Source of the DNA: Kiritimatiellia bacterium
Lineage (GTDB): Bacteria > Verrucomicrobiota > Kiritimatiellia > RZYC01
DNA length: 38,700 bases
Assembly: GCA_028708815.1 (NCBI GenBank)
Contig: JAQVYB010000017.1
Span: forward strand, 1 to 38,700
Direction: 5' to 3'
In this document: positions 706 through 19,532 of the stretch, piece after piece
Layout: every line of letters starts with the position of its first letter
How positions within the stretch are numbered: position 1 is the stretch's first letter
Position numbers and translations under genes: made by a program
Notes under the pieces: generated by a model
What the model saw: the letters and a program-made list of their open reading frames with translations, nothing else
Databases searched by the model: none
Told to the model about the DNA's origin: nothing

Positions 706-1032
706 TCAGGCCGACAGCACTCTATCCGGATTGCGCACAAGCGGAAACAGATCATCCACGCCGCCCATTTTCAACACCTTGCGTACATGGGAATTCGGCG
801 ACACATAGAACACGCCGTTTCTCTTCCGCACTTCTTTCCCCAATCCCACCAGATGACAAATGGCCGAACTGCCCAGAAACTCCGTCTCCTGCAAGTCCAC
901 CACCATTGTTTTCACATCCCGCTGCATCAACTGCCTGCACTCACTCTCCAGCAGACCCGTCGAAAAACTATCCACCACCCCGGATACCTTCAGAATCAGC
1001 CCTCCGGCCCGTTCGATCACTTCCACTTTCAT
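706..1032 (-). CDS. STAS-domain protein (anti-sigma factor antagonist-like)
   Basis: A 108-residue single-domain STAS protein of the SpoIIAA/RsbV type. The strand VDSFSTG (about 20-26) and the motif VVDLQETEFLGSSAICHL (44-61) match the fold; Ser55/Ser56 sit where the phosphorylated serine lies in anti-anti-sigma factors. In that family the unphosphorylated form binds an anti-sigma/kinase partner and releases a sigma factor or other target. The ATG at 1032 is preceded by GGGAGTGG at good spacing. No partner kinase adjoins it; it is transcribed away from the mevalonate genes, and the palindrome array lies in the shared upstream region. It is the most divergent of three STAS proteins in the window. 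Its actual target is unknown. Confidence 0.85.
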   Translation of the reverse strand: MKVEVIERAGGLILKVSGVVDSFSTGLLESECRQLMQRDVKTMVVDLQETEFLGSSAICHLVGLGKEVRKRNGVFYVSPNSHVRKVLKMGGVDDLFPLVRNPDRVLSA

Positions 1033-1442
1033 GGCCACTCCCTTTCCCGCAACACACCAGTCCTTGTACATGCAGCACGAACACATACAACCCCAAACTG
1101 ATTGTGATAAGTAATACGCTTCCGGCTTGAGACCACAATAAAAAACGTTCAAAATTCGCACCCTCGAAAGGGACTGTTCCACGCTGAAAAAAAAGGGCTG
1201 TAAAACAATATTGAACAACCCCGCACCCCCACATGGGACGCTTTCCAGACATTGGAAATGGGCCCGCCGCCTAATCGAACCACCCAACCGGAATTTCCAA
1301 TCATTGGAAAAATCGCCGGAAAAGTTTCCAATCATTGGAAAAATCGACTAAAAAGTTTCCAATCATTGGAAACTGCGTCGCTGTATAACAGTCCCGCCTG
1401 CGCGGGATTTCCAATCATTGGAAAAAACTTCAAGAGGCGGAT
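1033..1442. other. 410-bp divergent intergenic region holding palindrome array 1
   Basis: No credible gene is seen here; the short open frames across it come from the repeats. It separates the divergent STAS and HMG-CoA reductase genes and carries five palindromes between 1242 and 1424. A GC hairpin (TCCCGC-ctgc-GCGGGA, 1392-1407) lies between the fourth and fifth copies. The first 200 bp hold nothing I can name beyond AT-rich sequence suited to a promoter for the minus-strand gene. Confidence 0.6.
1242..1424. repeat. palindrome array 1: five phased 17-bp copies
   Basis: Copies lie at 1242-1258 (TTTCCAGACATTGGAAA), then 1294-1310, 1325-1341, 1356-1372 and 1408-1424 (all TTTCCAATCATTGGAAA). 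Each is a 7-bp inverted repeat around a 3-bp centre. Start-to-start steps are 52, 31, 31 and 52 bp, close to five and three helical turns. Linkers between copies 2-3 and 3-4 are both 14 bp and similar in sequence (AATCG...AAAAG), so a 31-bp unit has been duplicated in tandem. The last copy ends 18 bp before the HMG-CoA reductase ATG. The layout suits binding of a dimeric protein to one face of the DNA, or a run of RNA hairpins; neither is shown. Confidence 0.9.
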
Positions 1443-2495
1443 ATGAAAGACCAGGCCCGGGATGGAACACTTTGCGCATCAGTCCCCATGCAGCGCGTCG
1501 GGCCGGTCCTGCTGCACGGGCCGGATCTTGAAGGCGAAGTCCTCCTCCCGCTCGCCACCTACGAAACACCCCTCTGGCCCTCCGTAAACCGGGGCGCCCG
1601 CGTGGCCACCCAGTCGGGCGGTTTGCATGTGACCATCAACGACGACCGGATGACACGCTCCATCCTCCTCGAAGCCCCCACCGCCGCCGAAGCCCTGCGT
1701 ATCAGCCGCGAACTACTCACCCGGCATCGTGACACGCTCCGAACCGCCGCCGAAGCCTCCAGCCGCTTTGCCCGCTTCCTCGATCTCCACTCCCAACTTG
1801 CCGCCAACCTGATTTTTCTCCGACTCGAAATGCAGAGCGGCGACGCCTCCGGGCACAATATGCTCACCCAGGCCGCCGAGGCCATGACAAGCGCCATCCT
1901 TCAACTCCACCCCGAACTGCGCTACGTCTCCCTCTCCGGAAACTACTGCACCGATAAAAAAGTCTCCGCCGTCAACGGCATACTCGGACGCGGAAAACAC
2001 GTCACCGCCGAAGCCCTCATCCCTGAAAAAACCTGCGCCCGCTACCTCAAAACCTCCGCGCGCGCCGTCGCCAACCTCAACGTCAAAAAGAATCTGATCG
2101 GCTCCCTGCTCGCCGGCGGCATACGCTCCGCCAACGCCCACTTCGCCAACATGCTGCTCGCCTTCTATCTCGCCACCGGTCAGGACGCCGCCAACATCGT
2201 CGAAGGCTCCCAGGGCCTCACCCATGCCGAAGACCACGACGGCTCCCTCTATTTTTCCGTGACCATCCCGAACATCATCGTCGGCACCGTCGGAAACGGC
2301 AAGGAACTGGACTTTGTGCGCGAAAACCTGAACCTGCTGGGCTGTCTCGAAGAACGCGCACCCGGCGCCAATGCCCGGCGCCTCGCCGCCGCAGCCGCCG
2401 CCGCCGTCTGGTGCGGCGAACTCTCCCTCATGGCCGCCCTCACCAACGAAGGCGAACTCATGGCCGCCCACAAACGCCTGGAACGAAAACCATGA
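1443..2495 (+). CDS. hmgA: hydroxymethylglutaryl-CoA reductase (class I-like)
   Basis: Reduces HMG-CoA to mevalonate with NAD(P)H, the committed step of the mevalonate isoprenoid pathway. The 350-residue protein has no membrane segment and keeps the catalytic set: Glu41 in ETPLWPSVNRG, the block SGNYCTDKK (165-173) with Asp171 and Lys172, Asp248 in GQDAA, and His343 near the end in the position of the class I catalytic histidine. The GRGK (182-185), NAHFAN (231-236) and GTVGNG (281-286) blocks also fit. It is shorter than archaeal enzymes of about 400 residues, mainly at the N-terminus. AGAGGCGG precedes the ATG. The stop overlaps the isomerase start (ATGA), so translation is probably coupled. 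Palindrome array 1 forms its leader. Confidence 0.93.
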   Translation: MKDQARDGTLCASVPMQRVGPVLLHGPDLEGEVLLPLATYETPLWPSVNRGARVATQSGGLHVTINDDRMTRSILLEAPTAAEALRISRELLTRHRDTLRTAAEASSRFARFLDLHSQLAANLIFLRLEMQSGDASGHNMLTQAAEAMTSAILQLHPELRYVSLSGNYCTDKKVSAVNGILGRGKHVTAEALIPEKTCARYLKTSARAVANLNVKKNLIGSLLAGGIRSANAHFANMLLAFYLATGQDAANIVEGSQGLTHAEDHDGSLYFSVTIPNIIVGTVGNGKELDFVRENLNLLGCLEERAPGANARRLAAAAAAAVWCGELSLMAALTNEGELMAAHKRLERKP

Positions 2496-3511: not shown

Positions 3512-3697
3512 CGACGTGCGGAGAAACGGACTGTCGGTTTCGCGGGGGGCAGGAGGAAGCGATCCTATGGACGGAAGGCAAAATTCATGGCGAAGGATTC
3601 CCGTTGATACTTGCCGATACAGGACACGAACCATGAACCACAAACGTTCCGCGAACACGACGGCGAATGGAGATTCCTCCCCGGCGAAGGCGGCGAG

Positions 3698-4714
3698 ATG
3701 ACGTCATCCGATCTGCAATCCACTGGGACCGCGGGGCTCCGCACGGGGAAGGGGCTCCAAACTGGGAACGCGGGGCTCCGTACTGGGACCGCGGGGCTCC
3801 GTACCCGCATCTCTTTAGAAAACGCGAGTGCAGAGCCTCGCGGTCCCAGTACAGAGCCTCGCGGTCCCAGTACAGAGCCTCGCGATCCCAGTGCAGAGCC
3901 TCGCGGTCCCGGTGCAGAGCCTCGCGGTCCCAGTGCGGAGCCTCGCGGTCCCAGGGAGCCTCGCGGATGGCATTCGCGCGGATACATGCCCCACTTCGAC
4001 TCCAATGACGTGATTCAGCATGTCACGTTCCATCTGGCCGACAGTCTCCCGAAGGATGCCGTTCAGCTTCTCTTGGAGGAAATACAGGATCTGGATCCCG
4101 AGCAGCAGGACATCGAAAAGCACCACCGCCTCGAAGCGCTCATCGACGCCGGACATGGCGCCTGCTGGTTGCGGCGCCCGGATTGCGCGCAAAGAGTCCA
4201 GGATGCCCTCCTGCATTTCGACGCCGAGCGTTACCGCATGATCGCATGGGTCGTGATGCCCAACCATGTCCATGCGCTCTTCCAGACAATGAATCGTTGG
4301 AGCATGAATTCTGTGGTCGGATCATGGAAAACATTCACGGCCAACGCCATTGGAAAGCTCGTTCGCCAACCGAACGAACCGGTGCCCCACGTCTGGTACC
4401 CCGAATTCTGGGATCGCTACATCCGCGACGAAATGCATTTCGCCAACGCCATGGCCTATATTCACAACAACCCCGTGAAAGCGGGTCTCGTCTCGCAACC
4501 CGAACATTGGCTCTGGAGCAGCGCGTCCACTGGGAATGCCGGGCTCCGCACGGGGAAGGGGCTCCAAACTGGGAACGCGGGGCTCCGTACCCGCATCTCT
4601 TTAGAAAACGCGAGTGCAGAGCCTCGCGGTCCCAGTACAGAGCCTCGCGGTCCCAGTACAGAGCCTCGCGATCCCGGTCCGGAGCCTCGCGATCCCAAGG
4701 AAGGGCAACCATGA
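3698..4714 (+). CDS. REP-associated tyrosine transposase (RAYT, Y1/HUH family), REP-encoded ends
   Basis: A single-strand-specific HUH nuclease of the IS200-like TnpA_REP group; such enzymes cut and move REP hairpins. The core runs from about residue 91 (WHSRGYMPHFD) to 274. The HUH motif is MPNHVHALF with His190 and His192, and Tyr254 in AYIHNNPVKAGLV is the likely catalytic tyrosine. Residues 10-90 and 278-335 are coded by the flanking REP arrays as seven-residue repeats rich in PRG and GLR. The ATG at 3698 has AAGG upstream; a start at 3986 would spare the repeats but remove the conserved WHSRGY block, so the longer form is preferred. The stop overlaps the hsdS remnant start. Whether it is active is unknown. 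Confidence 0.85.
   Translation: MTSSDLQSTGTAGLRTGKGLQTGNAGLRTGTAGLRTRISLENASAEPRGPSTEPRGPSTEPRDPSAEPRGPGAEPRGPSAEPRGPREPRGWHSRGYMPHFDSNDVIQHVTFHLADSLPKDAVQLLLEEIQDLDPEQQDIEKHHRLEALIDAGHGACWLRRPDCAQRVQDALLHFDAERYRMIAWVVMPNHVHALFQTMNRWSMNSVVGSWKTFTANAIGKLVRQPNEPVPHVWYPEFWDRYIRDEMHFANAMAYIHNNPVKAGLVSQPEHWLWSSASTGNAGLRTGKGLQTGNAGLRTRISLENASAEPRGPSTEPRGPSTEPRDPGPEPRDPKEGQP
3721..3966. repeat. left REP-like (BIME-type) array of the first RAYT
   Basis: Forward units of the form ACTGGGACCGCGGGGCTCCGT (21 bp, about 3723-3804) are followed by a spacer with ATCTCTTTAGAAAACGCGAG. Then come about seven inverted units such as GAGCCTCGCGGTCCCAGTACA up to 3966. Forward and reverse units are near-complementary, so the block can fold into long GC-rich hairpins. 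Because 21 is a multiple of three, the array stays open and is read as heptads in the transposase frame (TGTAGLR and STEPRGP types). The stretch 3734-3890 recurs downstream at 4541-4675. Confidence 0.9.
4531..4697. repeat. right REP-like array of the first RAYT
   Basis: A near-copy, in the same orientation, of the array on the left side. From 4541 to 4675 it matches 3734-3890 almost base for base, with one 21-bp forward unit fewer, and includes the same ATCTCTTTAGAAAACGCGAG spacer. It codes the last 60 or so residues of the transposase. Together the two arrays bracket a core of about 0.57 kb. Confidence 0.88.
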
Positions 4715-8853: not shown

Positions 8854-9849
8854 ATGGCGCGCAAACCCAGAGTTTTGTTGGCGGGTGGTATTTATCACAT
8901 CACGAGCCGAGGCAATGACCGGCGCCTGATATTCAAAACGGATGATGACCGACGGCGTTTTCTCGAACGGCTAAGCGAGAGCGCTCAAACCTATGAGGTG
9001 CGCATCTATCTGTATTGCCTGATGGGCAATCATATACACCTTCTGCTTGAAACGCCTCATCCCAATCTGGATCGCTTTATGGGCAGCCTGCTGACGGGTT
9101 ACACGGTTTATTTCAACCTGCGTCATAACCGGGCGGGACACCTGATGCAGGGTCGCTACAACGCACAATTGGTGCAGGGAACCGAATACCTGCTGAAGCT
9201 GAGCCGTTACATCCATCTGAATCCCGTACACATCAAAGAATGGGCCGGCAAACCCCTCCCCGAACGCCTCGCGCACCTGCGTCGCTACCCTTGGAGCAGT
9301 TTCCCGGAATATGCGGGAACAGCCAAGCCCTGCGGATTTCTTTCCACCGAACCGATTCTGGGGCTGATGGTGCAGTTCGGGCGCGGACGAGAAACGACAC
9401 GCTATCGCAAATATATAGAGACCGGACTGGCGCAATCCGACGAAGAGTTTACAAATCTGATGGGCGAAAAAGGTGTAGCCATCGGATCGTCCGCGTTTAT
9501 CGGAGAGGTTAAGGAGCTGCACCGGCAGGCGGCGGAAGAGCGCAATCGACCGGAAGACGTTTCCTTTCGACAACTACGGACATTCCGCGACGCAAAAGAA
9601 GTAACCCGGGCTGTCGAAACCGTTTTGGGGATTTCGGATTTGCAATCGCTTAGTCCTCGTGCCTATTCGACGGAACGCGGTTTTTTGGCATGGGCACTCC
9701 AACATTTCGCGGGATTGACACAGCGAGAGGTTAGTCCATATCTGAACGTGCAAACCGGTGCAACGGTTTGTCTTGCGATCAAGCGGTTTGATGCCGCAGA
9801 AACATGCGAAGAGTGGAAGAAACGTCTTCGCTTAATATTTAAGGGCTGA
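8854..9849 (+). CDS. REP-associated tyrosine transposase with C-terminal helix-turn-helix region
   Basis: A 331-residue RAYT/Y1 transposase of a different subfamily from the one at 3698. It has the MARKPR start and YHITSRGNDR (14-23) typical of the group. The HUH motif is LMGNHIHLLLE (His60, His62), and Tyr119 in RYIHLNPVH is the likely nucleophile. Residues about 200-325 form an extension whose end (GLTQREVSPYLN and following) resembles the DnaA-C-like helix-turn-helix found in longer RAYTs. The last codons (LIFKG) lie in the right inverted repeat. No good ribosome-binding site precedes the ATG. All motifs are intact, so it may be functional. Confidence 0.9.
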   Translation: MARKPRVLLAGGIYHITSRGNDRRLIFKTDDDRRRFLERLSESAQTYEVRIYLYCLMGNHIHLLLETPHPNLDRFMGSLLTGYTVYFNLRHNRAGHLMQGRYNAQLVQGTEYLLKLSRYIHLNPVHIKEWAGKPLPERLAHLRRYPWSSFPEYAGTAKPCGFLSTEPILGLMVQFGRGRETTRYRKYIETGLAQSDEEFTNLMGEKGVAIGSSAFIGEVKELHRQAAEERNRPEDVSFRQLRTFRDAKEVTRAVETVLGISDLQSLSPRAYSTERGFLAWALQHFAGLTQREVSPYLNVQTGATVCLAIKRFDAAETCEEWKKRLRLIFKG

Positions 9850-19422: not shown

Positions 19423-19532
19423 TTTCCAACCATTGGAAAATTTTCCGCGCTTTTTTCCAATCGTTGGAAACTTTTCGGGCGGTTTTTCCAACCGTTGGAA
19501 ACTTTTTGGGCGGTTTTTCCAATCGTTGGAAA
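19423..19532. repeat. palindrome array 2: four copies at exact 31-bp steps
   Basis: Copies are at 19423-19439 (TTTCCAACCATTGGAAA), 19454-19470 (TTTCCAATCGTTGGAAA), 19485-19501 (TTTCCAACCGTTGGAAA) and 19516-19532 (TTTCCAATCGTTGGAAA). The arms are the same as in array 1 at 1242-1424; the central bases vary. Linkers are 14 bp and the last two are nearly identical (CTTTTCGGGCGGTT and CTTTTTGGGCGGTT). The array starts nine bases after the AsmA-like stop. The first copy is followed by ATTTT, so in RNA the hairpins could also help end transcription. Confidence 0.92.

What the first reader, a model, noticed from the sequence alone, without database searches (positions are those of the whole stretch)
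1242..1424. Palindromes spaced by whole helical turns in the leader of HMG-CoA reductase
Five copies of TTTCCAATCATTGGAAA (one with GAC for the inner bases) have start-to-start steps of exactly 52, 31, 31 and 52 bp. Since 31 is about three and 52 about five turns of B-DNA, all copies face the same side of the helix. The array is symmetrical (52-31-31-52) and ends 18 bp before the ATG of hmgA, between divergent genes. This suggests cooperative binding of a dimeric regulator or architectural protein, or a set of RNA hairpins in the hmgA leader. I know of no named element of this form.
Basis: partly seen in the sequence, partly recalled or inferred. Interest (0 to 1): 0.75.

Follow-up and report, generated by a model that had tools for sequence, protein, structure and literature searches.

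The report
Helix-phased palindrome arrays across Kiritimatiellia genomes
A 17-letter DNA palindrome occurs hundreds to more than a thousand times in the genomes of many Kiritimatiellia bacteria, almost always spaced by whole turns of the double helix, so it is most likely the landing site of an unidentified protein that binds one face of the chromosome; the copies before the HMG-CoA reductase gene are just one of hundreds of such arrays.

Summary
A second array (31-31-31) lies at 19423-19532. The tie to hmgA is incidental. The own genome holds 280 exact copies (reversed control 0), and four hmgA orthologues checked have no array. Related genomes hold up to 1108 exact copies.

The proposed test of helical phasing was run and passed. 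In about 2.7 Mb from some 19 genomes, adjacent spacings cluster at 22, 31/32, 42, 52, 63, 83 and 94 bp. Beyond the 31-bp mode, 81 of 97 spacings of 34-260 bp fall on multiples of 10.45 bp (about 30% expected); control motifs show no such bias.

The core is TTTCC-N7-GGAAA with lineage dialects (AA/TT, AC/GT, AT/AT, GA/TC) and the same spacing rule. Sites are mostly intergenic in every gene orientation and hug stop codons. In one genus they also lie inside housekeeping genes, where codons are conserved beyond the protein and sites come and go by substitution. Best reading: a genome-wide platform for an unidentified dimeric, cooperative DNA-binding protein, architectural or marking transcription-unit boundaries. 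The protein and function are not shown. RAYT/REP, RNA hairpin, CRISPR and hmgA-operator readings are disfavoured.

The parts
1242..1258 (.). palindrome copy 1 (TTTCCAGACATTGGAAA)
1294..1310 (.). palindrome copy 2 (TTTCCAATCATTGGAAA)
   Evidence: 52 bp after copy 1
1325..1341 (.). palindrome copy 3
   Evidence: 31 bp step
1356..1372 (.). palindrome copy 4
   Evidence: 31 bp step
1408..1424 (.). palindrome copy 5, ending 18 bp before the hmgA ATG
   Evidence: 52 bp step
19423..19439 (.). second array, palindrome 1 (TTTCCAACCATTGGAAA), 8 bp after the stop of the 16895-19414 gene
19454..19470 (.). second array, palindrome 2
   Evidence: 31 bp step
19485..19501 (.). second array, palindrome 3
   Evidence: 31 bp step
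19516..19532 (.). second array, palindrome 4
   Evidence: 31 bp step
1443..2495 (+). neighbour: HMG-CoA reductase gene (not specifically linked to the array)
   Evidence: Pfam PF00368 E 2.3e-84; orthologues in G024, G036, G041, G002 have no exact site nearby
706..1071 (-). neighbour: divergent STAS-domain gene
   Evidence: Pfam PF01740

Best explanation
The palindromes are binding sites for one unidentified, symmetric (dimeric) DNA-binding protein of Kiritimatiellia. Its half-site is TTTCC plus a lineage-specific dinucleotide, and the two half-sites sit about one helical turn apart. Dimers on neighbouring sites touch, or lie on a common surface, only when the sites face the same side of the helix, so spacings are held to multiples of about 10.45 bp: two, three, four or five turns within arrays, and up to roughly 25 turns between sparser sites. 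With hundreds to more than a thousand sites per genome next to unrelated genes, mostly between genes and often directly after a stop codon, it most likely acts as a chromosome-wide architectural or boundary factor (nucleoid organisation, insulation or roadblock between transcription units) rather than as an hmgA regulator. Shown: the motif, its abundance, the phasing, the dialects, the gene-end bias, and DNA-level conservation inside genes. Inferred: the protein, its dimeric and cooperative binding, and the architectural or boundary role.
For: Abundance against reversed control: 280 vs 0 exact in the own genome, 1010, 712, 1108 and 331 vs 0 in relatives. Phasing: in-phase 40/40 (18-28 bp), 33/39 (34-60), 28/32 (61-130), 20/26 (131-260), against 22-33% expected; best period 10.44 bp, n=586. 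It holds separately in G172, G080 and the other genomes, and is absent for a reversed control motif (36/91) and for degenerate matches away from true sites (317/1152). Spacers inside G008 arrays are no more alike than between arrays (0.424 vs 0.428), so fixed spacing is not just tandem copying there. Dialects with the same geometry: TTTCCAC..GTGGAAA in G075 (22 bp x23, 31 bp x24) and TTTCCGA..TCGGAAA in G052 (31/32 bp); TTTCCAT..ATGGAAA in G027. Arrays in tandem intergenic regions: 55/179 within 10 bp of the stop, random placement 27.6 (maximum 44); 8 within 10 bp of the start, random 27.9. In-gene sites of G172 are kept in G080: codon identity given the same amino acid 46/60 vs 4727/9628 background, with the central codon free (FQxLE, SNxWK). 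Ungapped gain/loss 10, conserved 24, gap nearby 3.
Against: No binding protein was identified. No expression or binding data exist here. Presence is patchy: whole families (f10, f31, f37, f45) lack the motif, so the function cannot be essential to the class. Arrays are not conserved at orthologous genes between families (hmgA). Sites inside genes in genus g19 fit a roadblock role poorly. In the own genome some arrays (L025, L029) carry identical spacers, so local tandem duplication also contributes there.
Confidence: 0.6

Rival explanations
1. Operator arrays of one classical global transcription factor: clustered, phased operators regulate the promoters of neighbouring genes (hmgA among them).
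For: Palindromic 17-bp operators and helical phasing are usual for dimeric repressors and activators; 39 arrays lie in divergent intergenic regions; the hmgA array ends 18 bp before the ATG.
Against: Arrays prefer stop codons and avoid the last 10 bp before starts; many lie between convergent genes; no gene family recurs next to arrays across genomes; hmgA orthologues lack them; sites also lie deep inside housekeeping genes.
Confidence: 0.17
2. A DNA uptake (self-recognition) sequence, like the Neisseria DUS, spread by biased transformation and recombination; phasing reflects multivalent binding to an uptake receptor.
For: Hundreds to thousands of copies, lineage dialects, sites in coding and non-coding DNA gained by substitution, gene-end clustering, and only 2 matching contigs among 2.9 million viral contigs. 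DUS dialects are described for Neisseriaceae (PMC3630211).
Against: Known uptake sequences are short and not palindromic and, as far as I know, are not held to helical spacing; these are 17-bp palindromes in phased arrays. ComEC is present in site-rich and site-free genomes alike (29 of 30), so it does not discriminate.
Confidence: 0.1
3. REP/BIME-like mobile palindromes spread by a RAYT (Y1) transposase.
For: Extragenic palindromes in clusters, gene-end bias; Y1 transposase genes occur in the window.
Against: Y1 copy number does not follow site number: G008 1010 sites with 2 weak hits, G045 105 sites with none, family f18 without this dialect but many Y1 genes. Sites are gained without insertion, spacers differ between arrays, and spacing follows the helix.
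Confidence: 0.03
4. RNA hairpins (leader structures, 3' stabilisers or terminators) in transcripts.
For: Each palindrome can form a 6-7 bp stem; position just after stop codons; the RNA of 1242-1442 folds better than shuffles (z -4.7), as any palindrome array must.
Against: Stems are weak (-4 to -6 kcal/mol); no T-run signature, and hairpin+T-run terminators are no rarer or commoner at array-bearing gene ends. Two-mismatch sites mostly change different pairs (186 of 242; 28 stay complementary). B-DNA phasing, including spacings between singles inside genes, has no RNA reason. No Rfam family fits.
Confidence: 0.04
5. Tandem (satellite-like) duplication of a 31-bp unit with no function.
For: In the own genome spacers within an array are alike (0.70 vs 0.54 between arrays), some identical (L025, L029), with a common A-tract polarity.
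Against: G008 and G035 spacers are unrelated; spacings of 22, 42, 52, 63, 83 and more occur and only in phase; in-gene sites are conserved as DNA between species.
Confidence: 0.03

Closest known systems
REP / BIME elements (Pseudomonadota and others; RepRanger survey PMC12306157)
   Same: Short extragenic palindromes, hundreds of copies, clusters, gene-end bias
   Different: No link to Y1/RAYT copy number, substitution instead of insertion, strict helical spacing, lineage dialects of the half-site
DNA uptake sequences of Neisseriaceae/Pasteurellaceae (PMC3630211)
   Same: Very abundant, dialects between related genera, in coding and non-coding DNA, established without insertion
   Different: Perfectly symmetric 17-bp palindrome, arrays phased at 10.45 bp, strongly intergenic in most genomes
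HIP1 of cyanobacteria (GCGATCGC; PMC4390886)
   Same: Highly iterated palindrome in whole genomes, patchy within a phylum
   Different: Longer, gapped palindrome; arrays; helical phasing; no methyltransferase core such as GATC
Abundant TAACTGA direct repeats of Beggiatoaceae (PMC4679880)
   Same: Clade-specific short repeats in small intergenic arrays beside unrelated genes, binding protein unknown
   Different: Those are heptamer direct repeats near start codons, read as RNA-level; these are palindromes near stop codons, phased as DNA
Sites of nucleoid or chromosome proteins (parS/ParB, matS/MatP, Noc sites)
   Same: Dispersed palindromic sites for one chromosomal protein
   Different: No ori- or ter-limited distribution was seen in samples of the complete G080 chromosome; far more sites, in phased arrays; protein unknown

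Membership tests
REP/BIME elements | Associated Y1 (RAYT) transposase accounts for copy number | tested here: not met
   PF01797 counts do not follow motif counts
REP/BIME elements | Units arrive by insertion | tested here: not met
   In-gene sites between G172 and G080: 10 lost/gained without gap, 24 conserved, 3 with a gap nearby
REP/BIME elements | Extragenic palindromes in clusters | tested here: met
   (except genus g19)
DNA uptake sequence | Hundreds to thousands of dispersed copies, with dialects | tested here: met
DNA uptake sequence | Short non-palindromic core (9-12 nt) | tested here: not met
   17-bp symmetric palindrome
DNA uptake sequence | Natural competence machinery goes with the motif | tested here: inconclusive
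   ComEC family in 29 of 30 genomes, with and without the motif
DNA uptake sequence | Motif-dependent DNA uptake | not testable with these tools
   Needs a transformation assay
Structured RNA / leader element | Match to a described RNA family | tested here: not met
   No Rfam match near a gathering score
Intrinsic terminator | Stable G+C-rich hairpin followed by a T-run | tested here: not met
   Stem energies -4 to -6 kcal/mol and no link to hairpin+T-run signals
CRISPR array | Repeats of about 23-50 bp with spacers of similar length, cas genes nearby | tested here: not met
   17-bp palindromes with 5-14 bp spacers, hundreds of places, spacing 22/31/42/52; cas genes not searched for
hmgA-specific operator | Conserved upstream of hmgA in relatives | tested here: not met
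   No exact site near hmgA of G024, G036, G041, G002
Helically phased protein-binding array | Spacings at multiples of the B-DNA repeat | tested here: met
   period 10.44 bp, controls flat
Helically phased protein-binding array | A protein binds the sites cooperatively | not testable with these tools
   Needs pull-down, EMSA or ChIP
HIP1-like iterated palindrome | Embedded methyltransferase site | not tested
   No recognised palindromic methylation core seen by eye in TTTCC-N7-GGAAA; no methylome data

The most novel reading that the evidence does not exclude
A class-wide 'facing code' written into bacterial chromosomes: a palindromic recognition site with lineage dialects is kept on one face of the double helix over tens to hundreds of base pairs, inside genes as well as between them, so that the DNA can be laid along an extended protein surface or filament. 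It would be a sequence-specific chromatin-like system with its own, still unknown protein.
Probability: 0.35. Interest if true: 0.92.

Novelty: new variant of a known kind. Interest (0 to 1): 0.78.

Why it matters
Genome-wide elements whose spacing is tied to the helical repeat are, to my knowledge, not described for bacteria in this form. Here the phasing is visible from sequence alone in many genomes, with controls, and reaches into protein-coding genes, where it shapes protein sequence (FQxLE and SNxWK peptides in PrmC, Mpl, DusB, PdxB). It predicts one abundant DNA-binding protein per lineage with co-varying specificity (dialects). It also offers a clean half-turn test of how a nucleoid or boundary protein reads the face of DNA in an understudied class.

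Tried and rejected
RAYT/REP mobility: Y1 counts do not follow site counts. hmgA-specific regulation: orthologues lack arrays. Terminators: no T-run signature and no complementarity with intrinsic terminators. RNA families: none. Recurring neighbour gene families as a regulon or as the binding protein's own gene: only 19 families were shared by 3 or more sampled genomes and none was convincing. Competence as discriminator: ComEC is nearly universal. Spread beyond the class: other Verrucomicrobiota classes have only weak excess, with random inner bases and no arrays in three checked genomes. Literature: no paper in the held library contains the 17-mers or 15-mers, and searches on Kiritimatiellia plus palindromes gave nothing relevant. 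Weak-site autocorrelation suffers from one-base-shifted self-matches of the palindrome, so I rely on the strong-site spacings instead.

Full report
Palindromes of the form TTTCCAANNNTTGGAAA start at 1242, 1294, 1325, 1356 and 1408, steps 52-31-31-52, and the last ends 18 bp before the ATG of a gene whose product matches HMG-CoA reductase. The window holds a second array, 31-31-31, at 19423-19532, between convergent genes and 8 bp after a stop codon. Against shuffles the window has 18 matches where 0.16 are expected.

It is a genome-wide element. The own genome (4.02 Mb, 272 contigs) has 280 exact matches; the pattern read backwards has none. In 288 genomes of the class 93 have at least one exact match, with up to 1108 per genome and essentially none for the control. 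A scan of public genome contigs for phased pairs returned records titled Kiritimatiellae, Kiritimatiellales and Pontiellaceae, plus MAGs labelled Lentisphaerae, Verrucomicrobia or Spartobacteria. I take the class to be Kiritimatiellia (inference from those titles). Other classes of the phylum have only a weak excess; three checked genomes showed random inner bases and no arrays.

The half-site has dialects. The wider core TTTCC-N7-GGAAA is abundant in genomes that lack the AA/TT form. Genome G075 uses TTTCCAC..GTGGAAA, G052 uses TTTCCGA..TCGGAAA, G027 uses TTTCCAT..ATGGAAA. The centre differs too: GCC/GGC dominates in G008 and G035, TCA/TGA in the own genome. Families f10, f31, f37 and f45 have none above control.

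Spacing follows the helix. Pooled adjacent spacings fall at 20-22, 29-33, 41-42, 51-52, 62-63, 83 and 94 bp with almost nothing between. With G172 and G080 added, 586 spacings between 18 and 260 bp fit a period of 10.44 bp best. In phase (within 1.6 bp of a multiple of 10.45) are 40/40 at 18-28 bp, 33/39 at 34-60, 28/32 at 61-130 and 20/26 at 131-260; 22-33% is expected, and the bias fades beyond 260. It holds in G172 alone, in G080 alone and in the remaining genomes, while a reversed motif (36/91) and degenerate matches away from true sites (317/1152) are flat. Dialect genomes give the same rule: G075 22 bp x23 and 31 bp x24; G052 31/32 bp. Caveats: loci were selected for a 30-33 bp pair, which inflates that mode only; G172 and G080 are in one genus and share some site pairs.

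The spacing is not merely inherited from tandem copying. In G008 the spacers inside an array are no more alike than between arrays (0.424 vs 0.428). In the own genome they are more alike (0.70 vs 0.54), sometimes identical, and carry an A-tract with a fixed polarity within each array (25 of 25 neighbours), so local duplication adds copies there.

Placement. With a home-made gene caller, arrays lie in convergent, divergent and tandem intergenic regions. In tandem regions 55 of 179 arrays begin within 10 bp of the upstream stop (27.6 expected, maximum 44 in 1000 random placements), and only 8 end within 10 bp of the next start (27.9 expected). In genus g19 (G172, G080) 46-60% of sites lie inside genes, all along them, while coding DNA is 84-88%. 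Of twenty samples along the complete G080 chromosome all but one carry sites, with no obvious origin or terminus domain.

Sites inside genes are selected as DNA. Between G172 and G080, PrmC orthologues share four sites at the same codons; other shared sites are in an Mpl/MurC-type ligase, a UvrD-type helicase, DusB and PdxB (gene names by my reading of the sequences). When the amino acid is the same, codons are identical in 46 of 60 cases inside sites and 4727 of 9628 outside, and the central codon changes freely (FQxLE with x = W/T). Sites absent from the partner lie in ungapped alignment in 10 cases, against 3 with a gap nearby, so they arise by substitution, not insertion.

Rivals. Y1 transposase numbers do not follow site numbers. 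Stems are too weak for terminators and no T-run goes with them; no Rfam family fits. hmgA orthologues in four relatives have no site nearby, and no gene family recurs beside arrays. An uptake-sequence reading shares abundance, dialects and substitution-based gain with Neisseria DUS (PMC3630211), but not the non-palindromic short core or the lack of phasing; ComEC does not discriminate.

Most likely mechanism. A symmetric protein binds the 17-bp palindrome as a dimer with its two half-sites about one turn apart, and neighbouring dimers cooperate only on the same face of DNA. Given the number of sites, their unrelated neighbours, the preference for gene ends and the phasing over hundreds of base pairs, I judge an architectural or boundary role most likely. 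The protein, the cooperativity and the role are inference. The held literature contains none of the 17-mers.

Noticed in passing
window 3611-4714 and 3722-3966, 4529-4697: A Y1 (IS200-like/RAYT-type) transposase gene carries 21-bp tandem repeats inside its reading frame on both sides of the domain, giving EPRGPS-type peptide repeats; it may be a REP-type element of its own, unrelated to the palindromes.
   Followed up: partly
window 8875-9849: A second, more typical Y1_Tnp gene; the own genome has 10 Y1 matches.
   Followed up: partly
L229:19003-19839, L253:6184-7023: PrmC-like orthologues in two species share in-gene palindromes 261, 83 and 178 bp apart (25, 8 and 17 turns), coding for FQxLE/SNxWK peptides.
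   Followed up: yes
own-genome arrays, e.g. L025, L029, window 1294-1372: Own-genome spacers carry A-tracts with one polarity per array; the five clearly polar tandem-region arrays all point the same way relative to transcription.
   Followed up: partly
G013: The ComEC match in this two-contig genome has 3 in-frame TAG codons, and a Y1 match there has 1; possible TAG recoding or pseudogenes.
   Followed up: no
L273, L274: Only two viral contigs among 2.9 million carry a phased pair; possible viruses or prophages of these hosts.
   Followed up: no
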